The position numbers and the translations under genes are program-made. From Candidatus Kuenenia stuttgartensis (GTDB lineage Bacteria > Planctomycetota > Planctomycetia > Planctomycetales > Planctomycetaceae): a DNA stretch of 38,121 nucleotides. A model generated the notes under the pieces. It searched no databases, had not been told where the DNA came from, and saw nothing but the letters and a program-made list of their open reading frames with translations. The stretch covers positions 1 to 38,121 of the forward strand of contig CAMDPK010000065.1 of NCBI GenBank assembly GCA_945904015.1, in the 5' to 3' direction. Of the stretch, positions 1,128 through 38,121 are shown one piece after another (positions within the stretch are counted from its first letter, which is position 1; the number at the start of each line of letters is the position of its first letter).

Positions 1128-1169
1128 CGGACGCCTACGTCCGAACGGGCGACCGGACGTAGGCGTCCG
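1128..1169. repeat. Nested palindrome, family F
   Basis: Perfect 16-bp inverted repeat, arms 1128-1143 and 1154-1169 with a 10-nt loop. Each arm (CGGACGCCTACGTCCG) is itself a hairpin of 6 bp around CCTA. It lies between the DUF1501 stop and the isochorismatase-like gene, and may act as a 3' stabiliser or terminator (inference). Confidence 0.85.
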
Positions 1170-1206
1170 GTCTACGAGAACGGCGGGTGAGCCAGGAGAC
1201 AACGAC

Positions 1207-2631
1207 GTGACGCGATATTCGATGTGGTTGGTGGCTTTGATGGGAGTGTGCTTGATGAGCGACCTCAGTCTCGCCCAGGAAGACTCGTTGTTACTGCGAT
1301 GCCGGTTGAGACGGCCCATACAGGACGCTGTCTCGAACAGCGAACGCACTGTTGTTGAAGAGGTCCAGAAACGTTGGGCACTGAAAGAAACCGCCGTCAT
1401 CGTCTGCGATGTGTGGGACGCGCATCACTGCTTGAACGCCGTGCGGCGGCTGGAAGAGTTTGCTCCGAGGATGAACGACGTCTTGATCGAGGCGCGGAAA
1501 CGCGGGGTGACGATCATTCATTCGCCGAGTGACTGCATGGCGGCTTATGAAGATCATGCGGCGCGAAAGCGAGCGGTCTCGGCTCCGACAGCGAAGAATG
1601 AACCCAAAGACGTCGAACAATGGTGCTCGCGAATTCCGAGCGAGGAGAAGGCGGTCTATCCGATCGACCAATCGGACGGCGGCGAGGATGACGATCCGGC
1701 GGAGAACGCAGAATGGGCCGCGAAGCTCAAGGGGATGGGCCGCAATCCGGGGATGCCCTGGAAGACGCAGTCGAAGCTGATCGAGATCGACGCTGACCGC
1801 GACTTCATCTCCGACCGAGGTGACGAAGTTTGGAACGTGCTCGAATCACGCGGCATCAAGAACGTGATCCTAGTCGGCGTGCATCTCAACATGTGTGTGC
1901 TCGGCCGGCCGTTCGGGCTGCGACAGATGGTTCGCAACGGCAAGAACGTCGCGCTGATACGCGACATGACCGACTGCATGTACAACCCGAAGCGTTGGCC
2001 TCACGTCGATCACTTCACCGGCAACGATCTCGTGATCGCACACGTCGAGCGGTTTGTCTGCCCGACGATCACTAGCGATCAACTTCTCGGCGGAGAGCCG
2101 TTTCGGTCGAAGTACGACAAGCGGACGGCGGCGAATCTTTCGATCAAGCCCCAGAATCCCCGCACCAATTGGCGGCCTGTTTCCATTGCCGAACGCTGGC
2201 CGCAACTCAGTTTCAAAGAGGCCGAGGATTATCAAGGCCCGTTTTGGATTCGTTGTGTCGTTCGGCTCCCCAGCGATTGGCTGCAATGGAAACGATTGCA
2301 GCTCAAGTTGGAGGTGGACCAAGAAACGTCGGTGTGGTTGAACGGCTACGAAGCCAGTTCGCAGATCGATGCAGGAAGCGGCAACTGCGTCACTTATAAA
2401 TTCCCGGCCGCGGCGATCCTGCCCGACGATTTCCATTTGCTCGTGATACGGCTTGAGGGGCCTGGTGGACATCTCTTGTTGCCCGACGCTCCGACGTTGG
2501 TCAGCGGCTCTCGAAAAATGGAACTGAAGGGGCAATGGCAACTCCGACTCGGCGACGACAAGTCCTGGTCGAACATCCCGCTGCCGGCGAAGTTTGGCGG
2601 CTCGACCGATATGCTGTTCGAGCCGAAGTGA
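1207..2631 (+). CDS. Secreted isochorismatase-like cysteine hydrolase with C-terminal beta-sandwich
   Basis: 474 residues. Residues 1-23 form a signal peptide ending near 'LSLAQ', so the protein is exported. Residues ~60-290 form an isochorismatase/cysteine-hydrolase fold: 'VIVCDVWDAHHC' carries the family Asp (D68), and 'GVHLNMCVLG' holds the predicted nucleophile Cys230. The family hydrolyses amides, ureas or enol ethers; the substrate here cannot be read. Residues ~330-474 look like a galactose-binding or glycosyl-hydrolase-2-like jelly roll ('EVDQETSVWLNGYEAS'), which may bind carbohydrate (inference). The ATG at 1207 is preceded by GGAG about 10 nt upstream. The gene is followed by a hairpin and then an amidohydrolase on the same strand, so a joint role in breakdown of small organics is possible but unproven. 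Confidence 0.85.
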   Translation: MTRYSMWLVALMGVCLMSDLSLAQEDSLLLRCRLRRPIQDAVSNSERTVVEEVQKRWALKETAVIVCDVWDAHHCLNAVRRLEEFAPRMNDVLIEARKRGVTIIHSPSDCMAAYEDHAARKRAVSAPTAKNEPKDVEQWCSRIPSEEKAVYPIDQSDGGEDDDPAENAEWAAKLKGMGRNPGMPWKTQSKLIEIDADRDFISDRGDEVWNVLESRGIKNVILVGVHLNMCVLGRPFGLRQMVRNGKNVALIRDMTDCMYNPKRWPHVDHFTGNDLVIAHVERFVCPTITSDQLLGGEPFRSKYDKRTAANLSIKPQNPRTNWRPVSIAERWPQLSFKEAEDYQGPFWIRCVVRLPSDWLQWKRLQLKLEVDQETSVWLNGYEASSQIDAGSGNCVTYKFPAAAILPDDFHLLVIRLEGPGGHLLLPDAPTLVSGSRKMELKGQWQLRLGDDKSWSNIPLPAKFGGSTDMLFEPK

Positions 2632-2637
2632 AATGTC

Positions 2638-2704
2638 GGATGGCCGCCCTCGGCCGTCTGCGGTTGATCACCCAACGATGCAGGACGGCCGAGGGCGGCC
2701 ATCC
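2638..2704. repeat. Nested palindrome, family C
   Basis: Perfect 21-bp inverted repeat, arms 2638-2658 and 2684-2704, 25-nt spacer. Within each arm GGCCG and CGGCC flank CCCT, so each arm is also a small hairpin. It starts 6 nt after the preceding stop codon and ends 24 nt before the amidohydrolase start. Confidence 0.9.
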
Positions 2705-2728
2705 TCCAACCCGATTAGGGAGCCACTC

Positions 2729-4433: not shown

Positions 4434-4457
4434 AGATTCGACGACCGCATAATCCGT

Positions 4458-4533
4458 GGGAGGGCGAGGCTCCCGCCGAGCCGTTCATGGATCGTTCTCC
4501 GCTGCTGCGGCTCGGCAGGAGCCTCGCCCTCCC
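4458..4533. repeat. Nested palindrome, family D
   Basis: 25-bp inverted repeat, arms 4458-4482 and 4509-4533, with one G-to-A mismatch. Each arm contains GGGAG...CTCCC around 7 nt. It sits between the convergent TauE/SafE and PQQ-propeller genes and could end transcription from both sides. Confidence 0.9.
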
Positions 4534-4562
4534 GATTTGAAACAATCTTGTGCGCGGTGATG

Positions 4563-6394: not shown

Positions 6395-6400
6395 GCGAGT

Positions 6401-6514
6401 CGTGGGGCAGGTTTTCAACCTGCCCGTCAATGTCTCGGCTCCGTCTTCCTTTGAGCAGTCCTCAAATCTGATTTTGGACCTCAGTGGACGGGCAGGTTGG
6501 AAACCTGCCCCACG
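6401..6514. repeat. Nested palindrome, family A copy 1
   Basis: 28-bp inverted repeat, arms 6401-6428 and 6487-6514, one mismatch, 58-nt spacer. Each arm holds GGGCAGGTT and AACCTGCCC around TTC (9-bp hairpin). It fills the gap between the convergent cupin and lipoprotein genes, 6 and 8 nt from their stops. Confidence 0.92.
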
Positions 6515-6522
6515 AGCCTGGG

Positions 6523-7919: not shown

Positions 7920-8093
7920 CCGTTTCGGATCGACGGAACAATTCATGGTCGATGCAGTGCGATGAATTTGAGGGGAAGTGACAGCTCACCCAAGAATCGG
8001 GCGAACCACAAGAGGCGGGCCGAGAGGCAGAATCGAGAAGAGGGCGGGTTGATAGCTGCAATCGGAAAGTGCAGCAAGAGGAAGTCGGAGGAT

Positions 8094-8132
8094 GGGCACT
8101 CTTGCCCGTCATTCGGTCGGGCAAGAGTGCCC
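8094..8132. repeat. Nested palindrome, family B copy 1
   Basis: Perfect 15-bp core inverted repeat, arms 8094-8108 and 8118-8132, 9-nt loop; the outer GGAGGAT of other copies is retained on the left only. Each arm is GGGCA-CTCT-TGCCC. It ends 3 nt from the dapF stop. Confidence 0.88.
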
Positions 8133-8135
8133 AAC

Positions 8136-8972
8136 CTACCTCGGCTCGTACACGCCAGAGCAAACTTCGACGGCTGGGCCGGTCATGTAGACCTCACCGC
8201 TTTCGGCCCATTCGAGGTGCAAGTCGCCGCCTCGCAAATGTGCTGTGACTTTGCGATCGGTCAGGCCCGCGAGGACTCCGGCGACAGCCGACGCACAGGC
8301 TCCGGTCCCGCAGGCCCAGGTCTCTCCAGAACCGCGTTCCCAGACACGCATGTTGAATTCAGTCGGCGAGAGAACCTGGATAAATTCAGCGTTCACGCGG
8401 CGCGGGAAGGCCGGATGTTTCTCAACGAGCGGGCCGATGCGCAGCACCCAGTCGTCGTTGATTTCGTCCACGAACGTCACACAGTGGGGGTTGCCCACCG
8501 AAACGCAAGTGACTTCAAACGTCTTGTCGCCGGCGGTCAGTTTCTGTCGGATCGGCGGATCGCCCGGCAACGTCGTCGGGATGTCAGCGCTCTTCAAGAT
8601 TGGCTGGCCCATGTTGACCCGCACTTGCCGAACGCGGCCTCCCTCGACATCGCATTGCAATGTCAGCACGCCGCGGCCGGTCTCGATACGCAGGGTTTCT
8701 TTGCGCGAGATGCAGTGGTCGAACACATATTTCGCGACGCACCGAATTCCGTTGCCGCACATTTCCGCTTCGCTGCCGTCGGCGTTGAACATCCGCATGC
8801 GAGCGTCCGCGATCTCCGACGGGCAAATCAAGATCACCCCGTCGCCACCAACGCCTGTGCGCCGATCGCTGATCTCAATCGCCAGTTTCGCGACGTCCGC
8901 CGGGATCTTCTCCTCGAAGCAGTTGACGTAGACGTAGTCGTTGCCGGCTCCGTGCATCTTGGTAAATCGCAT
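8136..8972 (-). CDS. dapF: Diaminopimelate epimerase
   Basis: 278 residues, the usual DapF length. It interconverts LL- and meso-diaminopimelate, the last step before lysine and a precursor of peptidoglycan, in the cytoplasm. The protein opens with '[11 protein letters not shown]' (substrate-binding Asn). The two catalytic cysteines are present in the standard contexts: Cys72 in 'MCGNGIRC' and Cys221 in 'ACGTGACAS'. 'TGVGGDG', 'GNPHCVTFV' and 'VWERGSGET' are further family signatures. The presence of an intact DapF fits current evidence that planctomycetes make peptidoglycan. The gene stands between the lipoprotein pair and DUF1501, each junction carrying a palindromic repeat, so it may be transcribed alone. 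Confidence 0.97.
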
Positions 8973-8991: not shown

Positions 8992-9086
8992 TTGGCGAGC
9001 GGAGGGTGTCAACCCTCCGAGTTTGTTCCGAGTTCTCGTTCTGTTCTCGTTCATTTCTCGGAGGGTTGACACCCTCCGCTCGCCAA
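8992..9086. repeat. Nested palindrome, family E
   Basis: Perfect 29-bp inverted repeat, arms 8992-9020 and 9058-9086, 37-nt spacer. Each arm carries GGAGGGT and ACCCTCC around GTCA. It starts 5 nt after the DUF1501 stop (minus strand) and lies just upstream of dapF. Confidence 0.93.
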
Positions 9087-9091
9087 GAGTT

Positions 9092-10429
9092 TCAAATCAA
9101 TTCGCTGACGACTCGCGCAGTCGTCGGCAGCACGCGGATGCGAGCGCCGGCGATCGTGGTCACGGTCGGATCTTCTCCGAAGCCGAGGTTGTGATACAGC
9201 GTGGCGAGCACGTCTTGGTAGTGGATCGGGCGGTCGATGGCTGAGTCTCCGAACTTGTCGGTCGCGCCGAGCACTCGGCCGACTCGCAACCCGCCGCCAG
9301 CCAGGATCGCGCTGTTGACTCGTGGCCAGTGATCGCGGCCGGCGTCTTTGTTGATCTTCGGAGTCCGACCGAACTCGCCGATGACGCAGACGGTCACGTC
9401 GCGGTCCAGGCCGCGAGCGTAAATGTCCTCGATCAACGCCGAGATGCCGGTGTCGAACAACGGCAGATGCTGCTTGAGGTACTTGAAGTTTTGGCCGTGA
9501 GTGTCCCAAAAGCCGTAGGCCACTGTGACAACTCGCACGCCGGCTTCGACGAGTCGCCGAGCCTGCAAAAGCTGATCGTTCCACATCGGAGCGCCGTCGC
9601 CGAGATGCTTCGCTGAGCCTTTGCCGTAGCGCTCGCGGACCTTCGGGGCTTCCTTCTCGACGTCGAGTGCATCGACCAGCCGGCTCGACGTGAGCACGTC
9701 GAACGCCTTTTGATAGCTCGTGTCCATGCCAGCCAGCGACAGGCTTTCGACGTCCCGCTTGATGCCGTCGATCGAAGCCAGCAACTCGCGTCGAGTCCCG
9801 AACCGCGAGGCATCGACGAATCGCAACTTCATGCTGTCGATGTCTTCGCCGTCGGCACTCACGCCGCGAAACGACGGGCCGAGCATCCCCGGCGAGGGGC
9901 TGTTGTACGGCCGATGCTGCATCGTCGGGAACAAGTCCACGAACGCCGGAGTGATCGCGTCCTTCGACCCCATCATGTTCGAGACCGCCGATCCGAAGTT
10001 CGGCCAGCCCTCGCGCTGCGCCGTGCTCATCGTGCGGCCGGTCAGACTTTGAAAGCTGCTGTGCTCATCGACCTGTCCAACGACGCTACGAATGATCGCC
10101 ATTCGATCGGTGCAGCCCGCGAGTTTCGGCAGCAACTCGCCGAGCTGGATCCCCGGCACCTTCGAGTCGATCGGCTTGAACTCGCCACGGATTTCGTCGG
10201 GAGCGTCCGGCTTTAGATCAACCGTGTCCTGATGCGCGATCCCGCCCGACAGATACACGACGATGACCGACTTGTTCGATGTTTTCGCCGCGCCGGTTTG
10301 CTCCGCTCGCAACAGATCAGGCAACGTCAGCCCGCCGAAGGCCAGCGAGCCAATCTGCAAAAAGCTGCGCCGCGAAAACCCGTCACAAAAGCGGGATCGC
10401 GAAGCCGAAGAGGTCAGAACATTGAGCAT
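9092..10429 (-). CDS. DUF1501 domain protein, complete
   Basis: 445 residues from the ATG at 10429. The frame stays open to 11335, but that part is antisense to the aminotransferase and passes through a palindrome, so it is not coding. The N-terminus has a twin-arginine signal ('SRRSFLQIGSLAFGG'), predicting Tat export. The sulfatase/phosphatase-like fold shows 'VIVVYLSGGIAHQDTVDLKP' near the start of the mature protein, 'FWDTHGQNF' centrally, and 'IGEFGRTPKIN', 'GRDHWPRV' and 'DRPIHYQDVLATLYHNLG' at the end. The family is hugely expanded in planctomycetes and often paired with PSD1/PSCyt1 genes; here no such partner is adjacent. Function unknown. Confidence 0.93.
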   Translation of the reverse strand: MLNVLTSSASRSRFCDGFSRRSFLQIGSLAFGGLTLPDLLRAEQTGAAKTSNKSVIVVYLSGGIAHQDTVDLKPDAPDEIRGEFKPIDSKVPGIQLGELLPKLAGCTDRMAIIRSVVGQVDEHSSFQSLTGRTMSTAQREGWPNFGSAVSNMMGSKDAITPAFVDLFPTMQHRPYNSPSPGMLGPSFRGVSADGEDIDSMKLRFVDASRFGTRRELLASIDGIKRDVESLSLAGMDTSYQKAFDVLTSSRLVDALDVEKEAPKVRERYGKGSAKHLGDGAPMWNDQLLQARRLVEAGVRVVTVAYGFWDTHGQNFKYLKQHLPLFDTGISALIEDIYARGLDRDVTVCVIGEFGRTPKINKDAGRDHWPRVNSAILAGGGLRVGRVLGATDKFGDSAIDRPIHYQDVLATLYHNLGFGEDPTVTTIAGARIRVLPTTARVVSELI

Positions 10430-10443
10430 GGCAAACGCCTCAG

Positions 10444-10509
10444 GGAGGATGGGCACTCTTGCCCGTCCCGGTCTCCAATTAGGCGGACGGGCAAGAGTGC
10501 CCATCCTCC
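10444..10509. repeat. Nested palindrome, family B copy 2
   Basis: Perfect 24-bp inverted repeat, arms 10444-10467 and 10486-10509, 18-nt spacer; arm core GGGCA-CTCT-TGCCC. Unlike most copies it lies between two divergent genes, only 14 nt upstream of the DUF1501 start, so it may influence that gene's leader. Confidence 0.92.
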
Positions 10510-10627
10510 AATCTCTCGTAACATCGGCAAAATAACGCTTGGAACCGTACCGGCGGAAGCCTGCATCGACTTCGGCACCGGTCTCGCGGAGTGGTGGCCG
10601 ATCGGCCGCGACGATTACAACGCCACG

Positions 10628-11992
10628 ATGAGCCAAACTCTCACGAAATTCAGCCAGCGCCGCCGTTGGGCGGCCGATCAAGCCATCAGCTTTTTGATGC
10701 AGCAAGGGGTCGAGCATCCGCACGTCGTGTCGCTCGCGGCCGGATTGGTCGACCCCGGCTCGCTGCCCGTTGCGGAAGCGATCGAAGCCGCTCGCGACGT
10801 CTTGTCCGATGACCTGCGTGCGCGATCGGCTTTGCAGTACGGCACGACGCAAGGCGATCTGCGGCTGAGGCGACAATTGGTCGACTACCACAACCGCCTC
10901 GAACAAACTTCGACGCTGGCCGCGAGTCGCACGGTCACGGCGGATGAGATCGTCTGCACGACCGGCTCGCAGCAACTGCTCGCGCTGTTGGCCGACGCGC
11001 TGCTCGATCCGGGTGACATCTGCCTCGTCGCCGCACCGACTTATTTCGTGTTTCTCGGAGTGCTCGAAGGTGTCGGCGCTCGCGCGATCGCACTGCCAGC
11101 CGACGAGCACGGCCTGCGAATGGATGCCCTGACCGCTGAACTGCAACGGCTTGAATCGGTCGGCGAGTTGTCGCGAGTCAAACTGATCTACGTCGTCAGC
11201 GAGTTCGAAAACCCGACCGGCATCAGCCTCTCGCTCGAACGCCGCGCCGAGTTGGTCGAGATCGCGAAGCACTGGTCGCAGCGGCGTGGCGAGACAATCT
11301 ATGTGCTGGAAGACGCGGCGTATCGCGAACTGCACTACGGCCCGCCGTCGTGGGGCAGGTTTTCAACCTGCCCGCCAACAGGGGTCACGAACTCAAATGA
11401 CGGGCACGTTGAAAACCTGCCCCACGATCCGAGCGTCTGGTCATTCGACGTCGCTGGCGACACGGTCATTCACGCCGGCACGTTCTCGAAAAGTTTTGCG
11501 CCCGGGCTACGAGTCGGCTTCGCCCTGATGCCGCGCGAGCTACGCGACGCGGTCAACGACCTGAAAGGGAACCAGGATTTCGGCTCGGCCAATTTCAACC
11601 AGCACCTGCTGGCCGAACTTCTCGCTTCCGGCCGCTTCGCGACGCACGCCGAGGAGGTCCGTGCCGCATATCGAATCAAACGCGATGCGATGCTGTCAGC
11701 CGCCGATGAGTTCTTTTCCGATCTGCCTGGCGTTTCGTGGGTCCATCCGCACGGTGGCTTGTACGTTTGGATGTCGCTGCCGCCGCAAGTCGCGACCGGC
11801 TTTGATTCAACGCTGTTCTGCCGAGCCGTCGATGTCGAGCAAGTCATGTACGTCCCCGGCGAACTGTGTTTCGGCGGTCCACGCGAGCAACGCGAACGCA
11901 ATCACATGCGACTCAGCTTCGGCGTGCAATCGCCTGACGGCATCCGCGAAGGAATGCGGCGGCTTAGCCGAGCGGTGCGGGCGGTACTTTGA
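10628..11992 (+). CDS. PLP-dependent class I/II aminotransferase with repeat-encoded insertion
   Basis: 454 residues from the ATG at 10628 (no clear ribosome site; further upstream the frame crosses a palindrome). It belongs to the MocR/2-aminoadipate (LysN/Kat-II) type of fold-I aminotransferase. Visible motifs are 'YGTTQGDLRLRRQL', 'TTGSQQLLALLADALLDPGD', the Asn-containing 'EFENPTGISLS', 'VLEDAAYRELHYG' with the Asp that binds the PLP nitrogen and Tyr, and 'TFSKSFAPGLRVG' with the Schiff-base Lys288. The C-terminal arginine is probably in 'HMRLSFGV'. Between 'RELHYG' and the lysine motif, residues ~242-267 are encoded by a 78-nt family A palindrome inserted in frame. All catalytic motifs flank it intact, so the enzyme could still fold with an extra surface loop. 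Amino-acid specificity is not predictable. Confidence 0.9.
   Translation: MSQTLTKFSQRRRWAADQAISFLMQQGVEHPHVVSLAAGLVDPGSLPVAEAIEAARDVLSDDLRARSALQYGTTQGDLRLRRQLVDYHNRLEQTSTLAASRTVTADEIVCTTGSQQLLALLADALLDPGDICLVAAPTYFVFLGVLEGVGARAIALPADEHGLRMDALTAELQRLESVGELSRVKLIYVVSEFENPTGISLSLERRAELVEIAKHWSQRRGETIYVLEDAAYRELHYGPPSWGRFSTCPPTGVTNSNDGHVENLPHDPSVWSFDVAGDTVIHAGTFSKSFAPGLRVGFALMPRELRDAVNDLKGNQDFGSANFNQHLLAELLASGRFATHAEEVRAAYRIKRDAMLSAADEFFSDLPGVSWVHPHGGLYVWMSLPPQVATGFDSTLFCRAVDVEQVMYVPGELCFGGPREQRERNHMRLSFGVQSPDGIREGMRRLSRAVRAVL
11349..11426. repeat. Nested palindrome, family A copy 2, inside a coding region
   Basis: 26-bp inverted repeat, arms 11349-11374 and 11401-11426, one mismatch, 26-nt spacer, total 78 nt (26 codons). 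It is translated as part of the aminotransferase; the peptide includes 'WGRFSTCPP' and 'VENLPHDP'. No stop occurs in the used frame. Confidence 0.93.
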
Positions 11993-15154: not shown

Positions 15155-15165
15155 GGAGGAGGGAC

Positions 15166-15226
15166 GAGTGGCGAAGGACGAGTGGCGAGTGGCGGAATTT
15201 AACTCGCCACTCACCACTCGCCACTC
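15166..15226. repeat. Imperfect inverted repeat built from GAGTGGCGA units, family I
   Basis: Arms 15166-15190 and 15202-15226 (25 bp, four mismatches) around an AT-rich 11-nt loop. Both arms are made of short GAGTGGCGA-like direct repeats. It starts 4 nt after the stop of the cytochrome gene and 11 nt before the ThiO-like start. Confidence 0.8.
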
Positions 15227-15230
15227 ATCA

Positions 15231-20323: not shown

Positions 20324-20669
20324 CGTTTGAAATTCGGGTGCGGGAGGAAATTTGGTGGGTGAAGCGGTGGGATGTTGTCACCCCGAGACGATGGTTTGAC
20401 GTGATTTCACCGTCGGCAACTCGCGGGGGAGTTTAGTCGGTCCAGGTGGATTCACAACCGAATTCTCACCAGCAAACGCCAGGAATAGCTGCTTCATCCC
20501 CGCATCATCCGGCCGACAGACAGAACCGTCAGAGTCGCAGCAGCCGGGGAGTCACCGCCGTTCGCACACGCAGTGGTCCAGGCGGAATCCCAGACTGTGT
20601 CCCTCAGGCCCTTGTGGCCTGAATGATTCGAGAACGAGCCAGGAATCGAGTGAGCCACAAGGGCTCTGA
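20324..20669. other. Intergenic region containing palindrome G
   Basis: 346 bases. The only structure I see is the inverted repeat at 20608-20664, which directly follows the transporter gene. The part next to the SDR start presumably holds its promoter, but no box is clear. Confidence 0.5.
20608..20664. repeat. Nested palindrome, family G
   Basis: 11-bp arms GCCCTTGTGGC at 20608-20618 and its complement at 20654-20664, extended imperfectly outward and inward (GATTCGAGAACGAG versus GAATCGAGTGAG region). The left arm is itself AGGCC-CTTGT-GGCCT. It lies 5 nt after the transporter stop. Confidence 0.75.
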
Positions 20670-22898
20670 CTACACCAGCGGGTTCTCGTCGGTCGTGCGG
20701 AAGATTTGCAGGTTGAGCCGATTTCGCAGACGCTGCAAGAAGTGTGGACCTTGCAGCGGAGTGCTCGGATGAAGATGAGCCTCCGCGAGTTCGGCGAGAC
20801 GCTTCGTGTGAAAGAACCCCAACATGCACGGCAAGAGCACCGAGTCGCCGATCAAAGACATTGTCAGCGTCGCGCCCATCAGCCACCCAAACAGAGCGGT
20901 CGGACCGAAGCTGCTGAACGTCAAAGCCAACATGCCGATCGACATGATCACCGTGGATTGCAGGATGGGTGGACCGGTTTGTTGCAAGGCGACGCGGGTG
21001 GCTTGAGCCTTGTCGCCGGTGGCCAGCAACTCTTCTTGATACCGCACCAGCATGTGGAACGAGCCGTCCACCGCGATGCCCAAGGCGATGCTGCCCGCCA
21101 TCATCATGCTGATGTCCACGGGGTGACCGACCCACCCCAAGAATCCAAAGACGTAGACGATCGGCGCGAGATTGGGGAGCATCCCAATGAATCCGGCGTT
21201 GAACCACTTCAGCGAGACGATCATCACCACCATGATTGACCAAAAGGCATACACGAAGGACGACCAGAAGCCGGTGTAGATGTCCTTTTGGGCCTGTTCG
21301 ATCAGCGGCGAGATACCGGTCAGTAGAACCGGCGCGTTGCCCAGCGAAGCTCGCAGTTCCTCCAGAGTCTTTTGTCCGACTCCTCGGCCCTCCGCATTGA
21401 GGTTGGCGGAGATTCGCCAGTATTGCTCGCCGCCCGCGAGGAAGTCGTTCTCTTTTTGTCGCTTTGTGGCTCGTTCCAACAATTGGGCCAATGCCAAGCC
21501 GCTGGGCATGTCAGTGGGAAACATCGATGCCAGCGACGTTGTGTGCGCGATGACGGGATGTGCCGAAATTAGGCTTTCCAACTCGCGGACGTATGTCAGC
21601 TTCGCGACGAATGGCAGCGATGCCAGTTGAGGATTGCGTCCGAAATCCACTGTGATTTCGATGGTGTCGGTGTTCGCCAGATCGGCTTGAATGCGGCGGA
21701 CATCTCGAAGCACGACGCTATTCTTGGGAAAGAACTCCAGTGGATCAATGTGCGAACGGAGGTGCATCATCCCGACGCCGCACAACAGCGAGGCCACGAC
21801 GCCGACGGCCACCACCGACTTGCTGCGGACGAGAAACCAATCCGAAATTCGCACAAACCAGCTATTTTCCGCTGCCTCAGCGCCGCGACGTTGAGGACGA
21901 CAAACACCGATGACTGCTGGAGTCAGCACCAATCCAACCGACAAGGCCACCAGACTTCCCAGCGTGCCAGCCCAACCGAATTGACGCACGGGAATGAACT
22001 CGCTGACGCACAGCGAGACCGAACCGATCGCGGCCGTAAACGTGGCCAGACAGCACGGTTTCACGGCATGATGAAACATGACTTGAAACCGGTCGACGTG
22101 ACCTTCGGCATTGGTGTAGTAGCTCAACAGATGCACGCAAACTTCGAGCGTGAAGACCATGACCATCACCGGCAGCGCGTCGATGACGAAGTTCATCTCG
22201 CCACCGCACCACTTCAGAATGGCGACTGTCAATTGCGTGGCGAAGACGGTCAGTGCCAGGATCATCCCGGTCATGCGCCAGTCGCGAAGCTGCACGTACA
22301 ACAAGCAGAGGCAAATCCCCAACGAAACGAAGAAGAATTTCTTGTTGGGCTCGCGGCCGCCCAGGCGATTGAGTTCGTCGATGACAACCGGCGCGCCCGC
22401 GATGTTGACGTCGTGTCCTTCGAGTTGACAGTACTTCAAGACTTCGCGGATGGACGTCACGGCTCCGGAGCGATCTTTGATACCGTGATCCGAGAGTGTC
22501 ACGACGATGCCCACTCGCTCGCCAGAGGGCGAGATGAACAACCCGCGCAGACGCTGCTCAATGTCCGCATCGGTGACAGTCAACTCGTGCATGACGTCGC
22601 GCATGCGTTGCGGAGTCCAGCAGTGGCGGACTCCCGGCGAACGTTCAATTCGACCGGCGATGCTCTCGATTAGATCATCGCCGAGACTGCGATCCAGCCC
22701 GACAAGAATCACTTCCTCAGCACCGAACCGCAGTTTGAATTCGTCGTATTCGCGGCGGACTTCCGACTTCTCCGGCAGCCACGCCTCGATGTTGTTGTTC
22801 GAGGGAATTGTCTCAGCGTGGTAATGCAGAAGCGGAAAGACCGCCAACGCCAGCAGCAACAAGCGCGAACTGTATTTCTTGTAAAACGAAGAAAGCAT
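20670..22898 (-). CDS. RND superfamily (MMPL-type) transporter
   Basis: 742 residues. The layout is that of a 12-segment RND exporter made of two similar halves. TM1 is at residues ~10-26, then a large periplasmic loop with 'IEAWLPEKSEVRREYDEF', then a cluster of about five TMs (~190-345), TM7 near 365-385, a second periplasmic loop (~390-580) and a last cluster (~585-715). The conserved 'GIAVDGSFHMLVRYQEE' in the second half corresponds to the 'D-x-x-x-H/Y' region of MMPL/SSD proteins, and 'FTLEVCVHLLSYYTNAEG' is its counterpart in the first half. Relatives move lipids, hopanoids or hydrophobic compounds out of the inner membrane, driven by protons. No membrane-fusion or outer-membrane partner is adjacent. 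Substrate unknown. Confidence 0.9.
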   Translation of the reverse strand: MLSSFYKKYSSRLLLLALAVFPLLHYHAETIPSNNNIEAWLPEKSEVRREYDEFKLRFGAEEVILVGLDRSLGDDLIESIAGRIERSPGVRHCWTPQRMRDVMHELTVTDADIEQRLRGLFISPSGERVGIVVTLSDHGIKDRSGAVTSIREVLKYCQLEGHDVNIAGAPVVIDELNRLGGREPNKKFFFVSLGICLCLLYVQLRDWRMTGMILALTVFATQLTVAILKWCGGEMNFVIDALPVMVMVFTLEVCVHLLSYYTNAEGHVDRFQVMFHHAVKPCCLATFTAAIGSVSLCVSEFIPVRQFGWAGTLGSLVALSVGLVLTPAVIGVCRPQRRGAEAAENSWFVRISDWFLVRSKSVVAVGVVASLLCGVGMMHLRSHIDPLEFFPKNSVVLRDVRRIQADLANTDTIEITVDFGRNPQLASLPFVAKLTYVRELESLISAHPVIAHTTSLASMFPTDMPSGLALAQLLERATKRQKENDFLAGGEQYWRISANLNAEGRGVGQKTLEELRASLGNAPVLLTGISPLIEQAQKDIYTGFWSSFVYAFWSIMVVMIVSLKWFNAGFIGMLPNLAPIVYVFGFLGWVGHPVDISMMMAGSIALGIAVDGSFHMLVRYQEELLATGDKAQATRVALQQTGPPILQSTVIMSIGMLALTFSSFGPTALFGWLMGATLTMSLIGDSVLLPCMLGFFHTKRLAELAEAHLHPSTPLQGPHFLQRLRNRLNLQIFRTTDENPLV

Positions 22899-28383: not shown

Positions 28384-29729
28384 AGACCATCGACTGCACC
28401 AAAGACAGCGCCGAAAAGCTGTTTGATTCCCTGCGCCAGAAGCTCTCGCCGCGCGGAGACGTCGTCTCTGAGGCCGGCCGCAAACGAACCATCGAACTCT
28501 TCGGCGAGCCGCTGACTCCGCAGCAAGTCGTCGAACGCATTTGCGACGACGTGCGTCAGGGCGGTCTGCCGGTCGTGTTGGACTACACAAAGAAGCTTGA
28601 TCGCAAAGAACTGACTCGCGAGACGCTACGAGTCTCCCCCGCCGAGTTCGATGCGGCCTTCGCATCGGCCGATCCGGAGTTTCTCAAAACACTCGGCCGC
28701 ATCCGCGACAACATCTTCGAGTTTCAAACCAAGCTGCTGAACCAAACTGTCTCGCTGAAGAAGCAAAACGGCGACGCGCAGATTGAACTACGGCAGCGAT
28801 ACCTGCCGCTCAAGCGAATCGGTATCTGCATTCCCGGCGGAGCGGCGGCGTATCCCTCGACGCTGCTGATGACCGCTGTGCCGGCTCAAGTCGCCGGCGT
28901 GAAAGAGATCGCCGTCGTCGCGCCGCCGACCGCGTTCGGCAGCTACAACCGCGACCTGCTCGCCGCCTGCAAGTTGCTGGGCATCACCGAGGTCTATCGG
29001 ATCGGTGGAGCACAAGCCGTCGCCGCATTGGCATTCGGCGTCGAGGGACTGCCGCGAGTCGACAAGATCGTCGGTCCCGGAAACCTGTTCGTCGCGCTTG
29101 CCAAGAAGTTCGTCTACGGCGAAGTGGACATCGACAGCATCGCCGGCCCCAGCGAAGTCGTTGTGATCGCCGATTCAACTGCGCGAGCCGACTTCATCGC
29201 CAGTGATTTGATCTCGCAAGCCGAACACAGTCCCGGATCAGGCGTGCTCATCACCTGGCACGCGCCGCTGATCGCTGCCGTTCAAGACGAGTTGACGAAG
29301 CAACTCGCTTGCTTGCCGCGCGGCGACCTCGCGCGACAATGCCTCGAAGACTACGGAGCGTTGATCCTCGCGAAGGACGCCGACGATGCTTGCCGGCTGT
29401 CGGATTTGCTCGCGACCGAGCACTTGCACATCTCGACCGCCGATCCCGAAGCGATCCTCGCAAAGGTCCAAAATGCCGGTGCGATCTTCCTCGGACATCA
29501 CACGCCGGTCGCGGTCGGAGATTACGTCGCTGGCCCGTCGCACGTCTTGCCGACCGGTGGCACCGCCCGCTTCGCGAACGGCCTCTGCGCGAACGATTTT
29601 CTGAAGCGATCCTCAGTCATCTCATACAACGCCGCCGCTCTATCGAATGCCGCAGACGACATTCGACGCATGGCGGCAGTCGAAGGGCTGACCGCTCACA
29701 GCGCGAGTGTCGATATTCGTCTGAAGTAG
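28380..29729 (+). CDS. hisD: Histidinol dehydrogenase
   Basis: 449 residues, slightly longer than the usual ~430. It oxidises L-histidinol to L-histidine in two NAD+-dependent steps, with zinc, in the cytoplasm. Signatures: 'RIGICIPGGAAAYPSTLLMT', 'RIGGAQAVAALAFG', 'VDKIVGPGNLFVALAKK', 'DSIAGPSEVVVIAD', and 'SQAEHSPGS' whose Gln280 and His283 are zinc ligands. 'ATEHLHIST' carries the catalytic Glu-His pair, and 'NGLCANDFLKRSSVI' closes the active site. The start overlaps the YhaM-like stop (ATGA). No other his gene is nearby, so histidine genes are dispersed as is usual in planctomycetes. The stop codon is the first part of a palindromic repeat. Confidence 0.97.
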   Translation: MKTIDCTKDSAEKLFDSLRQKLSPRGDVVSEAGRKRTIELFGEPLTPQQVVERICDDVRQGGLPVVLDYTKKLDRKELTRETLRVSPAEFDAAFASADPEFLKTLGRIRDNIFEFQTKLLNQTVSLKKQNGDAQIELRQRYLPLKRIGICIPGGAAAYPSTLLMTAVPAQVAGVKEIAVVAPPTAFGSYNRDLLAACKLLGITEVYRIGGAQAVAALAFGVEGLPRVDKIVGPGNLFVALAKKFVYGEVDIDSIAGPSEVVVIADSTARADFIASDLISQAEHSPGSGVLITWHAPLIAAVQDELTKQLACLPRGDLARQCLEDYGALILAKDADDACRLSDLLATEHLHISTADPEAILAKVQNAGAIFLGHHTPVAVGDYVAGPSHVLPTGGTARFANGLCANDFLKRSSVISYNAAALSNAADDIRRMAAVEGLTAHSASVDIRLK

Positions 29730-29793
29730 GATGGGCACTCCTGCCCGTCCCTCCTCGCCACGAGGAACGCGGACGGGCAAGTGTCCCCATCCT
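29728..29793. repeat. Nested palindrome, family B copy 3 (decayed), overlapping the hisD stop
   Basis: 22-bp arms at 29728-29749 and 29772-29793 with three mismatches and a 22-nt spacer. The left arm begins with the last two bases of the hisD TAG. Its mismatches, against perfect copies elsewhere, suggest an older insertion. Confidence 0.85.
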
Positions 29794-29920
29794 CCAAACC
29801 GACCGAAATCCCGCTCATCGGTGTTCAATTTCACCGGAGCCGCTCGTCAGGCTGAGATAGCCGCAGGGCGGGCGGCCGATACAATCCGAGCCGCTCATTT
29901 GCCCCCAGTCGGAGTCGATC

Positions 29921-32900
29921 ATGTCTCAAGACGCTGCGTGGCTCCCGTCCGAAATCGCAGATCAATTGACCGAGTTGAGATCGTGGGTCCGCTGGCAATG
30001 GTTGCTGCGTGGGGCCGGCCGAGTCGGCATGATCGCGTCGCTTGGTTTGGCCGGAGCGTTCTTCGCGGACTATCGGTACGACTTGGCTCCGACGACGCGC
30101 ATCGCGGTGTTGGCGAGCGTCGCAGCCGTGACGCTGCTGACCTTCCTGGCCTGGGTCGTCGTGCCACTGTGCCGACGCATCGGTTGGGCGGAACTCGCAG
30201 CGATGGCGGACAAGGCGAATCCACGTTGGGAAGGCGCGCTGACGTCGGCGGTGGAATTATTTGATCCGACTCAGCCGGACGGATTCAAAGGCTCGCCGGT
30301 GATGCGCGAGATGTTGCTCAAGCAAACGCGGCAACGCATTGACGAGCTTGATCTCGAAGAAGTTGTCTCGTCGCGCAAGGCGTGGTCGTCGGTGCGGTGG
30401 GGACTCGCGTCGTGTGTGCTGCTGGCGATTCCGGTGTTCGTCGCGCCGAGCATGTATCGCCAACTCTGGCAGCGGTTCCTGCTGCCGTGGGGCAATTGGG
30501 GCACGGCCGGAGCGTGGACCGTCGCCGTCGAAAACGGCGATCGCATCGTCGCTCGCGGAACTGATGTCGAATTGCTGGCGACAGCCGAGAAGGACGGACA
30601 GGTCGAACCGCCGAAATCGCTGACGCTCGAATGGCGTGACTCGGCCGGCACGACGGATCGCCGAGCGATGCCGTTCGATGAAGCTCGCAAGTCGTTTGTC
30701 GCACTGGTGCCGCATGTCATGCGTGATTTTGATTTCCGCATCGCGGTCGACCGTCAGAAATCGCGTGACTACAAGATTCAGGTCGTCGAGCCGCCCGTCG
30801 TCACAAAAATCCGACTCGATGTCGAGCCTCCCGCTTACGCCGGTTGGCCCGCGCAATCGCTGGACGGTGCGATTGGTGCGATCAAGGTTTTCGAAAAGAG
30901 CCGGCTGAAGTTCACGCTTGAATTCAACAAGCCGGTCGAGACCGCTCAACTTGTCTGGCGGCAGCACGGCGATGTGAACCAGAAACTCGAACTCGCCGCA
31001 TCAAAGCAGGCCGCGACGCTCGAAGTAACCGCTGATCCCGCCGTTGCCGGATCGTTCTTGTTCGTGTTGGAAGACATCCACAAGTTGCCGAACAACGACA
31101 CTGTGCCGCGCGAGTTGGTCGTCGTCACCGATGAAGCTCCGAAGCTGACGGTCAAAGGGGATCACAGCACCGAAGCCCGGCCGGACGATGTCGTCCCGAT
31201 TGACGTGACTGCCTCCGACGACGTCGGTCTTGGCACGCTGGAACTGCACTTGATCGTCGAAGAGAAATCGCGTGAGCCGATCGCGGTTGAGGCCGTTCGC
31301 GGCCAGAAAGATTTCGAGCATCGTTTCACGCTCGACCTCAGCCAACTCAACGTCGAGCACGGCCAGTGGTTGAACTACCGCGTCCGCATCACCGACGAGC
31401 GTCCCGGCCCCGGCCCGCACGAAGTCTGGTCCGAACCGCGAGTCCTCCGCATCAGCAAGAAAGCCGCGCCGCCAGGAGCCAACGAACTCGCCAAGTCGCA
31501 CGAGCAACTGCGAGACGAACTCAACGACCTCCGCCGAGACATCGCCACCAAGGCGACCGAGATTCAAGACCTTCGCAAAGAGGCCGCTCAAGCCAACCGC
31601 AAAAAAGACGACCCGCCCGATGCCGAACACGTCGCGCAGCTTCAGAAGCAACTGCATCAACTCACCGAGCGAGCCGAACAACTCGCCCAGCAGTTGTCGC
31701 AAGACCCGCTGTTCCACGAACTCGGCGAGAAGGCCGAGCAGATCGCTCAAAATGAACTGGCGAAGGCCGAGGCCGAAGTCCAACAGTCACGAGGAGAAGC
31801 CGATCAGCCACTCAACAAGGAACAACTCGACCATCTGAATCAAGCGGAGAAACAACTCGATAGCGCCGCCAAGCAACTGTCCCAACTCGAAAAGCCCTTC
31901 GAGCAACTCGCCGACTTGCAGAAGGACTTGCTGGAATTCCGCCGCCTCGCCCGTCAGGCCGAACAACTCGCCAACCGTGCTGACGAACTCGCCAAGAACG
32001 AAGCCGCGAAGCCGGCAGACCAGCCCGACGTGCCAGCGAGGGATGAAAAGCAACCCGAAGCGTCAGCGAGGGACGAGAAACAAGCCGCCGCCGATGCCGC
32101 GAAAACCGAACAAGAAAAACAACAACTCGCGGACCAACAAAAGCAACTCGCCGATGCGCTCAACGACCTCTTGAAGCGTCGCCCCGAATTGCTCGCAGCC
32201 GCTCGTCGCGATCAACTCGAACAACTCGGCGAACTCGCCGAAGAGGCTCGCCAACTCGCCGAGCAACAAAAAGAACTCGCCGCCGCGCTCCGCGAGCAGC
32301 AAGCCGCCGCCGCCGAACGCAACGCTGAACTCGCCGAGAAGCAACAAGACCTCCAGAAGCGAGCAGTAGCCGCCACTGAAAAAGCGGCTGCCGCGAAGCC
32401 CGCAGGCGACGAACCGAAGACCGACAAGCCCGCCACTCCCGAAGCTCTGCAAGACGCCGTTGCCGCGCTCAAGCAAGGCGACCTCGCTGAAGCTCAGAAG
32501 CAACAGCAACAAGCCGCCAACGAGCTCGATCGTCTTGCTGCTGAATTACAGAAGGCGAAAGCTGACATCGCGCAGGCTGCTGAACTGCCGCGTGACTCCG
32601 CTGAGAAGCAACTCGCACAACTTGCGGAGGAACAGCGTCAACTCGCGAAAGAGGTCGCACAGGTACTTAAAGAACAGGGTGGAGACCAACCAAAACCGGA
32701 AGCCGCTCAACCTCTCGCAGCGAATGAGCAAGCGAACGCGAACAATGACAAAGAACAGCCGAAGCCCGCGAAGGATGAGCAGGCCGATAACAATGCGGAA
32801 GATCCAGAAGAAAAGAAAATCGTATTGACCGTCCGGCTGTTCAATCAGGACGCCAAGTCATTGGATGTTCGCGATTACTCGAAACGAAACGACCTCGAAG

Positions 32901-36321: not shown

Positions 36322-36340
36322 TTGGAGTGCATTCACAACG

Positions 36341-38059
36341 ATGAGAAGCCAACAGTGGTTCGCCGCTCGCGAGGAGCAGACCTTTCAGAATCGTTCCGCG
36401 CTGAGGTCAATGGGACTCAACCCGGATGACTTCGTCGGCAAGCCGGTGATCGGCATTGCGAACAGTTGGAGCGACCTCAACAACTGCAATGCGAACCTGC
36501 GCGAGTTGGCCGAGGCGGTGAAGCGCGGCGTGCTGCTCGAAGGGGGACTGCCGCTGGAGTTCCCGACGATCTCGCTGGGCGAGGAGTTCATGAAGCCGTC
36601 GGCGATGCTGTATCGCAACTTGATGGCGATGGATGTTGAAGAAACTCTGCGAGCCAACCCGATCGACGGCGTCGTGCTGCTGTGCAACTGCGACAAGACG
36701 ACGCCGGCACAGCTCATGGCGGCGGCCAGCGCGGACTTGCCGGCGATTCAACTCAACGGCGGCCCGCGAGCGATCAGCCATTTTCACGGTGAGCCGATTG
36801 GTTCGGGGACTGACCTGTGGCGGTACTCGGACGAACGCAGGGCAGGGCGGTTGTCGGATGCGGACTGGCGAGAACTCGAAGCGTGCTACGGCTGCGGAGT
36901 CGGGGCGTGCAACACGATGGGGACGGCTTCGACGATGACGTCGTTGTCGGAAGCGCTCGGCATGATGTTGCCGGGGACGGCCAGCATTCCGGCGACGGAC
37001 GCTCGGCGCATGCAAGCGGCAACCGCGACCGGCCGGCGCATCGTGCAGATGGTTCACGAAGATTTGCGGCCGTCGCGAATTCTCACACACGCCGCGTTCG
37101 ACAACGCAATTCGAGCATTGCTGGCGCTGGGCGGTTCGACGAACGCGGTCGTGCATCTGATCGCGATGGCTGGGCGACGCAACATTCGATTGCCGCTGTC
37201 GCGGTTTGATGAGCTGGCACGGACGACGCCGTTCCTCGTCAACTTGATGCCATCGGGACAGCACTTGATGGATCGGTTCCACGCGGCGGGTGGCTTGTCG
37301 GCCGTGCTGGCGGAGATTTGCGATCTGCTGAATCTCGACAGCCTGACCGTCACCGGCCGGACGCTGGGCGAAAACATCGCTCGCGCTCGCAGCTTTGATC
37401 GTGAAGTGATCCGCTCGCGCGAGCAGCCGTTGGCGGAAGGTGGCTCATTGGCGGTATTGACCGGCAATCTCGCGCCTCGCGGGGCAGTCATCAAAGTGTC
37501 GGCTGCGTCGCCGAAGCTGATGAAACATCGTGGCCGAGCGGTGGTGTTCCACGATTACGAAGACCTTCTCGCTCGAATCAACGATCCGGCATTGCCGGTC
37601 GATGCCGACAGTGTGCTCGTGTTGCAGAATGCCGGGCCGAAGGGCGTCCCCGGATTTCCGGAATGGGGCAGCATCCCGATTCCGACGAAGCTCTTGCAGG
37701 CGGGTGTGACCGATGTCGTGCGGATCAGCGATTCGCGCATGAGCGGCACGGCGTTCGGGACGGTCGTGCTGCACGTCGCTCCCGAAGCGGCGGACGGTGG
37801 GCTGATTGGACTCGTGCAAGACGGCGACGTGATCGAGTTGGATGTTGAATCACGCCGACTGCAACTGCTGGTGGACGATGCCGAGCTGTCTCGTCGCCGA
37901 GCGGTTTGGCAGCCGCGACCGATCAAGCACCTGCGCGGGTATCCTCGGCTGTACATCGACCATGTGCTGCAAGCGGACGAAGGCTGCGACTTCGATTTCC
38001 TGCGGCCGTCGAGCGACGCCGAGTTGGAATTCGTGCAACCGGTGGTCGGGCGGTCCTAG
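36341..38059 (+). CDS. IlvD/Edd family dehydratase, sugar-acid (arabonate/xylonate-type) subgroup
   Basis: 572 residues. Three cysteines for the 2Fe-2S cluster are in place: Cys49 ('DLNNCNANL'), Cys117 ('LLCNCDKTTP') and Cys190 ('GVGACNTMGTAST'). Their spacing of 68 and 73 residues equals that of L-arabinonate dehydratase as I remember it. 'SGTDLWRYSDERRAG', 'LALGGSTNAVVHLIAMAGR', 'NLMPSGQHLMDRF' and the final 'ISDSRMSGTAFGTVVLHVAPEA' also resemble sugar-acid dehydratases more than biosynthetic IlvD. The reaction would remove water from an aldonic acid to give a 2-keto-3-deoxy acid. Automatic pipelines would probably call it ilvD (dihydroxy-acid dehydratase), which remains possible. It starts 19 nt after the toroid gene but is not obviously related in function. 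A family A palindrome begins 3 nt after the stop. Confidence 0.85.
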   Translation: MRSQQWFAAREEQTFQNRSALRSMGLNPDDFVGKPVIGIANSWSDLNNCNANLRELAEAVKRGVLLEGGLPLEFPTISLGEEFMKPSAMLYRNLMAMDVEETLRANPIDGVVLLCNCDKTTPAQLMAAASADLPAIQLNGGPRAISHFHGEPIGSGTDLWRYSDERRAGRLSDADWRELEACYGCGVGACNTMGTASTMTSLSEALGMMLPGTASIPATDARRMQAATATGRRIVQMVHEDLRPSRILTHAAFDNAIRALLALGGSTNAVVHLIAMAGRRNIRLPLSRFDELARTTPFLVNLMPSGQHLMDRFHAAGGLSAVLAEICDLLNLDSLTVTGRTLGENIARARSFDREVIRSREQPLAEGGSLAVLTGNLAPRGAVIKVSAASPKLMKHRGRAVVFHDYEDLLARINDPALPVDADSVLVLQNAGPKGVPGFPEWGSIPIPTKLLQAGVTDVVRISDSRMSGTAFGTVVLHVAPEAADGGLIGLVQDGDVIELDVESRRLQLLVDDAELSRRRAVWQPRPIKHLRGYPRLYIDHVLQADEGCDFDFLRPSSDAELEFVQPVVGRS

Positions 38060-38062
38060 CGT

Positions 38063-38121
38063 CGTGGGGCAGGTTTTCAACCTGCCCGTGAGTGGCGGGC
38101 AGGTTGAAAACCTGCCCCACG
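38063..38121. repeat. Nested palindrome, family A copy 3
   Basis: Perfect 26-bp inverted repeat, arms 38063-38088 and 38096-38121, 7-nt loop; same arm as the copies at 6401 and 11349. It begins 3 nt after the dehydratase stop and reaches the end of the window. Confidence 0.93.

What the first reader, a model, noticed from the sequence alone, without database searches (positions are those of the whole stretch)
1128..38121. A group of unrelated repeat families sharing one nested-palindrome design
Directly visible: seven repeat families with different sequences have the same plan. Each arm (11-29 nt) is itself a hairpin, and the second arm is the reverse complement of the first, so two small hairpins can rearrange into one long stem. 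Inner hairpins: A GGGCAGGTT/AACCTGCCC (6401, 11349, 38063); B GGGCA/TGCCC (8094, 10444, 29728); C GGCCG/CGGCC (2638); D GGGAG/CTCCC (4458); E GGAGGGT/ACCCTCC (8992); F CGGACG/CGTCCG (1128); G AGGCC/GGCCT (20608). Spacer length varies from 7 to 58 nt even within family A, while arms stay nearly identical. Shared architecture without shared sequence suggests one mobilising or structure-maintaining activity acting on many sequences. REP/BIME elements of enterobacteria are the nearest known parallel (established knowledge).
Basis: partly seen in the sequence, partly recalled or inferred. Interest (0 to 1): 0.82.

Follow-up and report, generated by a model that had tools for sequence, protein, structure and literature searches.

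The report
Many REPIN families, most with transposases
The repeated double hairpins in this planctomycete DNA are REPINs, tiny mobile elements made of two inverted palindromes; this genome holds at least seventeen such families, most of which can be tied to a transposase gene of their own here or in related genomes, and one copy sits in frame inside an enzyme gene.

Summary
The families are REPINs: inverted pairs of repetitive extragenic palindromes, each arm a hairpin preceded in most families by a GTAG/GTGG/GGAG tag, tags outward. In 22% of the genome I counted 526 arms in 18 families: 216 tag-out pairs, 0 tag-in, 1 head-to-tail. Family A has 318 inner hairpins genome-wide.

The predicted partner exists, but it is not one activity. 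Family A's transposase is in the same genome, bordered by three family-A REPINs; it matches NCBI's REP-associated transposase model and a solved TnpArep. Eleven other families, including B, C and F, border transposases in this genome or relatives; three of these border class-3-like HUH genes.

Relatives have empty sites, or another family, where REPINs sit here. One family-A REPIN adds 25 codons in frame to an aminotransferase gene.

REPIN/RAYT systems are known, also in planctomycetes: a rich new member of a known kind. D, G, P13 and M have no assigned transposase, E and I only probable ones; G is low-copy.

The parts
1122..1175 (.). REPIN, family F: GTAG-tagged arms 1122-1143 (+) and 1154-1175 (-), spacer 10
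   Evidence: 46 arms in 22% of genome; F doublet on the one visible side of a RAYT gene cut by a contig end in relative G008 (L152)
2635..2707 (.). REPIN, family C: arms 2635-2658 and 2684-2707
   Evidence: 8 arms in sample; C-type arms on both sides of RAYT L327 in relative G063
4458..4533 (.). REPIN, family D: arms 4458-4482 and 4509-4533
   Evidence: 9 arms, 4 tag-out pairs in sample; no cognate transposase found in the loci scanned
6400..6515 (.). REPIN, family A copy 1: GTGG-tagged arms, spacer 58
   Evidence: no A doublet at the orthologous site in the 4 relatives whose two flanks were found
8087..8139 (.). REPIN, family B copy 1 (GGAG/GTAG tags)
   Evidence: at the same site relative G006 holds a family-E REPIN and G002 another GTAG doublet
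8992..9086 (.). REPIN, family E: arms 8994-9021 and 9057-9084
   Evidence: shared by G005, empty in G003, G009 and G001 (0-6 nt), X10 doublet in G006 and G011
10444..10509 (.). REPIN, family B copy 2 (GGAG tags both ends)
   Evidence: family-B doublet also in G005 and G002 at this site
11348..11427 (.). REPIN, family A copy 2, inserted in frame inside an aminotransferase gene
   Evidence: of 8 relatives with both flanks, 5 have an empty site and 3 a different 89-nt palindrome at the same position
10232..11992 (+). Open frame containing an aminotransferase class I/II domain that holds the in-frame family-A REPIN (true start codon not determined)
   Evidence: Pfam PF00155 E=1.4e-29; alignment with 8 relatives
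20603..20673 (.). Family G doublet, degenerate; GTAG tag at the right end only
   Evidence: a second doublet of this type at L186 about 5080-5151
29726..29795 (.). REPIN, family B copy 3
32053..32072 (+). Single arm of the X3 family (CCGA foot) inside a 1376-aa open frame
   Evidence: X3 arms border class-3-like gene L006 in the own genome
38063..38121 (.). REPIN, family A copy 3, spacer 7, at the window's end

Best explanation
The families are populations of REPINs. Each REP arm is a hairpin preceded, in most families, by a 4-nt tag (GTGG in A; GTAG or GGAG in B and C; GTAG in F); two arms face each other with tags outward around a short spacer. In single-stranded DNA each tagged hairpin is the recognition site of a cognate HUH single-strand transposase (TnpAREP/RAYT; a class-3-like protein for X3, X3b, X10 and probably E) that cuts and rejoins single strands and so moves the doublet into new sites. 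SHOWN here: sequence and orientation, copy number, predicted fold, families bordering particular transposases, co-variation of the two, and absence or replacement of the element at orthologous sites in relatives. INFERRED: that these proteins cut these hairpins, that the doublet is the moving unit, and that the tag guides cleavage (reported for other TnpAREP/REP pairs). No cell function of the arms is needed to explain what I saw; the families look like separate semi-selfish populations, each served by its own transposase.
For: Tag: families found from repeated 13-mers, blind to structure, have GTGG or GTAG at one end in 6 of 15 (A, B, F, P6, P7, P13); 90 of 92 A arms carry GTGG, 44 of 46 F arms GTAG, 28 of 28 P6 arms GTAG. 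Fold: single A and B arms leave exactly the four tag bases unpaired, F six bases. Arrangement: 216 tag-out, 0 tag-in, 1 head-to-tail pairs. Copies: A 318 in own genome, 0 for the reversed pattern; 308 tagged. Transposase: L148, own genome, six A arms = 3 doublets, all within about 220 nt of the frame's ends, the left one overlapping its 3' end; NF047646 80.6 bits vs cut-off 80; only PDB match 4er8, TnpArep, E=1.4e-6. Relatives and own genome: B, C, F, H, J, K, P6, P7 arms border RAYTs; X3, X3b, X10 border class-3-like genes. In 80 homologues from several phyla, GT[AG]G hairpins are 2.32 per kb within 500 bp and 0.22 per kb beyond 1.2 kb; 66 of 80 have at least one near. Co-variation: Mantel r=0.50 over 73. 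Mobility: empty and re-occupied sites. Unit: loops of the two arms of A doublets agree in 25 of 38, shuffled mean 17.7, p=0.006; some families keep a narrow spacer length, e.g. H 32-34.
Against: No cleavage or movement was observed; all is sequence comparison. D, G, P13 and M have no transposase among the loci examined. E rests on similar, not identical, arms around one class-3-like gene in G007 (L108/L216), I on similar arms around L162. B, C and F partners were found only in relatives (the assembly is 91.7% complete), and F's on one side only. Of the 10 RAYT-type proteins scanned only L148 (barely) and L132 reach the NF047646 cut-off; the other 8 score 46.6-78.7 against 80. Most PF01797 hits in relatives had none of the window's arms beside them. 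Mock tags are also denser near the 80 homologues than far away (0.25, 0.85, 0.89 against 0.09 per kb), probably in part because they read the same hairpins in other registers. Family A spacers vary widely in length and sequence. Feet differ from GT[AG]G in D, E, X3, X10, X3b and M, and 22 of 55 B arms carry GGAG. At the A2 site the element stands in place of about 5 nt rather than being a pure addition. The Mantel test does not separate protein-hairpin co-evolution from shared host ancestry.
Confidence: 0.92

Rival explanations
1. One common activity (a single transposase or a structure-maintaining factor) acts on all families.
For: All doublet-forming families share the tag-out plan, with 216 of 217 close pairs in that orientation.
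Against: Different transposases are bordered by different families, the same pairing recurs across genera (B: L155, L326, L328, L334; P6: L007, L346; J: L156, L339, L349), and protein and hairpin distances co-vary.
Confidence: 0.04
2. The hairpins are host-made RNA structures (bidirectional terminators or mRNA 3'-end stabilisers) kept by selection, and their spread is only ordinary duplication.
For: In the window they lie mostly between genes and fold strongly; such side roles are discussed for REPs (PMC3733652, parts read).
Against: 318 copies of one hairpin type, restricted mainly to one genus (10 of 11 same-genus genomes; 2 of 25 other-genus same-family; 0 of 22 more distant), insertion inside a gene, different families at the same orthologous sites, transposases bordered by the same arms. 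A terminator needs no conserved tag or loop sequence.
Confidence: 0.03
3. They are MITEs: deletion remnants of classical DDE insertion sequences with terminal inverted repeats.
For: Inverted repeats around a short non-coding spacer.
Against: Each arm is itself a hairpin with an unpaired tag; the genes they border are HUH/Y1 proteins; no target duplication is evident at the A2 site, though this was not tested systematically.
Confidence: 0.02

Closest known systems
REPINs with RAYT/TnpAREP (Bertels & Rainey 2011, PMC3116915; Nunvar 2013, PMC3686654; passages seen, abstracts in part)
   Same: GT[AG]G-tagged hairpins in inverted doublets with a spacer; several classes per genome; a cognate transposase gene flanked by its own REPs; hairpin and transposase vary together.
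   Different: Here 17 doublet-forming families (GT[AG]G-type and other feet together) were counted in part of one genome, and tag-in pairs were not seen (0 of 217 close pairs). Nunvar's 22 and 13 classes are for whole species groups, not per genome.
GTAG palindromic repeats, head-to-head dimers (Di Nocera 2013, PMC3733652; parts of the text read)
   Same: Tag-out dimers predominant; Planctomycetes and R. baltica named; repeat-specific REPtrons; REPs inside genes reported.
   Different: Its Table 1 calls tag-in dimers frequent; none in my sample. I did not see the individual planctomycete sequences (figures are not held).
Class 3 TnpAY1 proteins (PMC6006769; class 3 section read, other passages seen)
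   Same: Own genes L006 and L008 carry a Y....Q motif; planctomycete host; bordering hairpins with a CnGA foot (CCGA, CGGA) in X3 and the L008 type; high copy of X3.
   Different: Here such hairpins are counted as tag-out doublets (X3 27, X10 26, X3b 11 in the sample), and four arm types lie on both sides of class-3-like genes (X3, X3b, X10, L008 type). X10 and X3b feet are not CnGA, and YVLEAQ/YTLEAQ do not fit the paper's exact Y-motif consensus.
E. coli REP/BIME
   Same: Tagged palindromes in inverted pairs (literature); the L148 protein matches the solved TnpArep 4er8 (that 4er8 is from E. coli is recalled).
   Different: Different hairpin sequences; tag-in pairs not seen here; larger clusters were not surveyed.

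Membership tests
REP (GTAG superfamily) | 20-40 nt hairpin with an unpaired GTAG/GTGG tag at its foot | tested here: met
   A, B, C, F and the extra families P6, P7, P13, H, J, with GGAG in 22 of 55 B arms. Not met by D, E, X3, X10, X3b, M, whose feet differ.
REPIN | Two inverted REPs around a spacer, able to form one long hairpin | tested here: met
   216 tag-out pairs in 17 families; G none at the cut-off used; folds
REPIN | High copy number, mostly between genes | tested here: met
   Copy numbers (C, D, I, J, K, M have only 6-10 arms in the sample, G 2). Placement judged only for the window's REPINs from ORFs and Pfam; A2 is an intragenic exception.
REPIN | Cognate RAYT flanked by the same REPs | tested here: met
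   A in own genome (L148); B, C in relatives on both sides, F on one side. Not found for D and G; E only probable.
REPIN | Mobility of the doublet | tested here: met
   Comparative only: empty or re-occupied orthologous sites among 6 window loci. No direct transposition assay.
RAYT / TnpAREP (L148) | Y1 HUH transposase core with H-x-H and catalytic Tyr motifs, scoring with the family model | tested here: met
   NF047646 80.6 bits, cut-off 80; invariant H115, H117, Y185 among 12 aligned proteins; PDB 4er8. It was not among the PF01797 matches.
RAYT / TnpAREP (L148) | Single copy, with no transposition of the gene itself | tested here: inconclusive
   One family-A-bordered gene found in own genome, draft assembly; immobility not tested
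RAYT / TnpAREP (L148) | Cleaves cognate single-stranded REP | not testable with these tools
   Needs purified protein
Class 3 TnpAY1 (L006, L008) | HUH, Y....Q motif, flanking hairpins with CnGA foot | tested here: inconclusive
   NHVH/YVLEAQ and NHCH/YTLEAQ, feet CCGA and CGGA fit the general description; the exact printed Y-motif consensus is not matched and the published class-3 profile was not run.
Class 3 system (family E) | E arms on both sides of a class-3 gene | tested here: inconclusive
   Only similar arms around L108/L216 in G007; the E pattern gave 0 hits in the loci scanned

The most novel reading that the evidence does not exclude
This genus runs two parallel REPIN systems, one served by TnpAREP and one by class-3-like HUH proteins. 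Together they hold more than a dozen co-resident, separately specified populations that fill the same few permissive spots, including a loop inside an enzyme gene where two different palindromes inserted independently and in frame. REPINs would then act as a standing source of short in-frame peptide insertions, and class 3 would be a REPIN-mobilising lineage of its own rather than a curiosity between IS and REP transposases.
Probability: 0.42. Interest if true: 0.65.

Novelty: new member of a known kind. Interest (0 to 1): 0.47.

Why it matters
It replaces a puzzling 'same design, different sequence' observation with a concrete, testable system: about a dozen hairpin/enzyme pairs with a named candidate enzyme each. 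That is a good natural set for asking how TnpAREP recognises its hairpin, a question studied with three pairs in PMC8266576 (abstract seen). It also gives clean comparative insertion events in a phylum where I found little on REPINs (listings), suggests that class-3-like HUH proteins move REPINs too, and shows that these elements can insert in frame within genes. For genome readers it means such double hairpins should be considered as REPINs before terminators or riboswitches.

Tried and rejected
A single common partner: rejected because families border different transposases. PF01797 alone as a RAYT detector: it found 8 genes in the own genome but not L148, the family-A partner, which came only from a protein search with a relative's RAYT. 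Scanning the first 8 own Y1 genes and 69 relatives' loci for A, B and F arms gave no gene bordered by them (one search covered 37 of these loci for tagged hairpins); later searches did. Family G as a high-copy family: not supported (2 arms at up to 3 mismatches; 5 loop-anchored hits against 0-11 for 20 shuffled cores, not above chance; the pairing count in that script was out of register and is not used). D's transposase: not found in the loci scanned. The 'A2(acg)' consensus overlaps family A at 3 mismatches and was left out of all totals; 4 cross-family overlaps among the 526 arms were left in. The counted sample is not random: 8 of its 80 fetched stretches were chosen because they hold Y1 genes, the others are parts of the largest contigs, so P6 and X3 in particular may be over-counted. 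Draft assemblies and MAGs were used throughout. One search read three genes on the wrong strand; one search replaced it. I make no claim that such a census of planctomycete REPINs is not in print; I saw only the listings and six papers opened in part.
Full report
WHERE IT IS. The window is contig 65 of a 7.43 Mb, 286-contig assembly, 91.7% complete. A planctomycete cytochrome domain (PSCyt1) in the window and same-genus contigs whose lengths equal those of MAG contigs labelled Planctomyces sp. (G010 contig 27, 60,645 bases = CAMDEA010000027; G007 contig 185, 17,636 bases = SXKJ01000222) place it in Planctomycetota; the identification by length is inference.

OBSERVATION. The inverted pairs are present as described. 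Nested pairs (inverted repeat whose arm is itself a hairpin) number 7 in the window at my cut-off, against 0 in each of 30 Markov simulations, and 83 in 824,652 bases against 0 in one simulation. Folded as single-stranded DNA, ten pairs each form a long stem (z -5.5 to -14.4), while three arms folded alone form short hairpins; in A and B exactly the four tag bases stay unpaired, in F six bases do.

Families found purely from repeated 13-mers, without asking for structure or tag, have GTGG or GTAG at one end of the hairpin in 6 of 15 cases (A, B, F, P6, P7, P13); the other nine are X3, X3b, X10 and six repeats of other kinds. Tag counts in 22% of the genome: A GTGG 90 of 92; F GTAG 44 of 46; P6 28 of 28; P7 26 of 27; P13 21 of 23; H 20 of 21; B GTAG 28 and GGAG 22 of 55; C GTAG 4 and GGAG 2 of 8. 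D, E, X3, X10, X3b and M have other feet. Genome-wide, A has 318 inner hairpins, none with the pattern reversed, and 308 with a GTGG tag.

ARRANGEMENT. With 18 family consensuses (A2 excluded because it overlaps A), up to 3 mismatches, 81 stretches and 1,624,652 bases, I count 526 arms. Of close neighbours (150 nt or less) 216 are tag-out pairs, 0 tag-in, 1 head-to-tail. In one order-2 simulation of the same stretches the same scans give 1 arm for A and 0 for every other counted family. 17 of the 18 families form at least one tag-out pair; G forms none at this cut-off. The sample is not random (8 stretches were chosen for Y1 genes). Spacer lengths differ between families: H 32-34, P13 15-16 in 7 of 9, P6 65-79, F 6-10 in 13 of 22, A 7 to 66 with 11 commonest. 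Spacer sequences are mostly diverged. In A doublets the loops of the two arms agree in 25 of 38 cases, shuffled mean 17.7, p=0.006, so the doublet tends to behave as a unit.

PARTNERS. PF01797 finds 8 Y1 transposases in the own genome, none bordered by A, B, C or F arms. A protein search with a relative's RAYT found a further gene, L148 (G000 contig 229), with one A doublet on one side, overlapping the 3' end of the frame, and two on the other, six arms in all; in the sample A arms occur about once per 18 kb (92 in 1.62 Mb), so six at one gene is not chance. L148 passes NCBIfam NF047646 barely (80.6 bits against 80); of the other nine RAYT-type proteins scanned only L132 passes, eight score 46.6-78.7. 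Its H-x-H and Tyr positions are invariant among 12 aligned proteins, and its only PDB match is 4er8, TnpArep. Other pairings: B with L155 (G001), L326, L328 and L334; C with L327, a protein 67% identical to the B partner; F with L152 (one side, gene cut by a contig end); P6 with own L007 and with L346; P7 with L165; H with L146 (both sides) and L147 (one side); J with L156, L339 and L349; K with L163. Arms of the 'A2' and I types border L150 and L162. X3 arms border own L006, X3b own L221 and G011's L213, X10 G010's L211; a further arm type borders own L008. These proteins resemble the published class 3 (Y....Q motif, planctomycetes, CnGA foot; PMC6006769, class 3 section read), though the exact Y-motif consensus is not matched. 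E-like arms border one such gene, L108/L216. D, G, P13 and M remain unassigned.

BEYOND THE GENUS. One scan of the species-genome collection with the L148 protein gave 114 relatives, 80 kept, from Planctomycetota, Acidobacteria, Chloroflexi, Bacteroidetes/Ignavibacteria and others. GT[AG]G-tagged hairpins lie within 500 bp of 66 of the 80, 2.32 per kb, against 0.22 per kb more than 1.2 kb away. Three mock tags give 0.25, 0.85 and 0.89 per kb near and 0.09 far, with 15, 30 and 36 of 80 loci; they too are enriched near, probably in part because they read the same hairpins in another register. The two nearest relatives, 58% and 54% identical, are bordered by GTGGGGCAGGTC and GTGGGGCAGGTT hairpins, close to or the same as family A. 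Over 73 of 90 transposases (those with a near hairpin and at least 90 residues) protein distance and hairpin distance correlate, r=0.50, 0 of 2000 permutations as high, largest 0.15. Shared host ancestry is not removed by this test.

MOBILITY. Family A is local: exactly tagged A hairpins occur in 10 of 11 same-genus genomes (1 to 163 copies), 2 of 25 other genera of the family (6 and 1 copies) and 0 of 22 more distant genomes. Six window sites were compared with 11 fetched orthologous stretches from 10 genomes. A2: both flanks found in 8; 5 have 5 nt between them, 3 a different 89-nt palindrome, none family A. E: both flanks in 10; G005 shares E, G003 and G009 have nothing, G001 6 nt, G006 and G011 an X10 doublet, G007 arms of an E-related type, and G002, G010 and G004 680-751 nt not examined. 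B1: both flanks in 8; G011 and G003 carry altered versions, G006 a family-E doublet, G002 another GTAG doublet, G005 and G007 17 and 8 nt, G009 and G001 other sequence. B2: both flanks in 10; G005 and G002 carry B, the rest 3-126 nt of other sequence. D: both flanks in 5, none with D; G009 and G011 have X10-type arms. A1: both flanks in 4, none with an A doublet; G005 has a 33-nt remainder that includes part of an arm. So some permissive spots are filled by different families in different species.

INSIDE A GENE. A2 lies in the middle of an aminotransferase domain (PF00155, E=1.4e-29). It is read through without a stop. Five of the 8 relatives compared lack it, and three carry the other palindrome at the same codon position, also in frame; the own protein is 25 residues longer there than that of G005. 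REPs inside genes were described by Di Nocera et al. (PMC3733652, sections and passages seen), so the phenomenon is known; the use of one position by two different palindromes is the notable part.

HOW IT WORKS. By analogy with studied TnpAREP/REP pairs (PMC8266576, abstract and outline only; PMC3116915, passages only), the protein binds the folded single-stranded hairpin with its tag, cuts and rejoins. Nothing here tests that step. The consistent tag-out geometry suggests that the enzyme acts on both ends of a doublet. No target duplication is evident at A2; this was not tested systematically.

NOVELTY. REPINs and RAYTs are known, in planctomycetes too (PMC3733652 names R. baltica). What looks unusual is the number of families in one genome, two enzyme types serving the same architecture, the absence of tag-in pairs, and site sharing. 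I file it as a new member of a known kind. On re-checking I lowered two odds slightly (best explanation 0.93 to 0.92, novel case 0.45 to 0.42) because F's partner is one-sided and class-3 membership is not settled.

Noticed in passing
window 32053-32072: A perfect X3-family arm (CCGA foot) lies in frame inside a 1376-residue open frame with a C-terminal transglutaminase domain.
   Followed up: partly
L006 1853-1977: The class-3-like transposase's own C-terminal tail is encoded by three copies of its REP arm (repeated TRSVSEGERSP), so the gene runs into its bordering repeats.
   Followed up: no
L007 1447-1980: The P6-family transposase frame looks interrupted upstream, and GTGGCACAG-tagged hairpins of another type lie there; whether these inserted into the gene was not tested.
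   Followed up: no
window 33614-33949: Array of 18-nt repeats (13 registers) inside the same long open frame.
   Followed up: no
window 35173-35284 and 15150-15242: Two further inverted repeats of a different style (GCCGATGG- and GAGTGGCGA-type units) that are not among the 18 families counted.
   Followed up: no
orthologues of window 8992-9086 in G002, G010, G004: 680-751 nt of extra sequence at the family-E site in three relatives, not examined.
   Followed up: no
L148 versus PF01797: The family-A transposase is not among the eight own-genome matches of the Pfam Y1_Tnp search, so such counts can underestimate RAYTs.
   Followed up: yes
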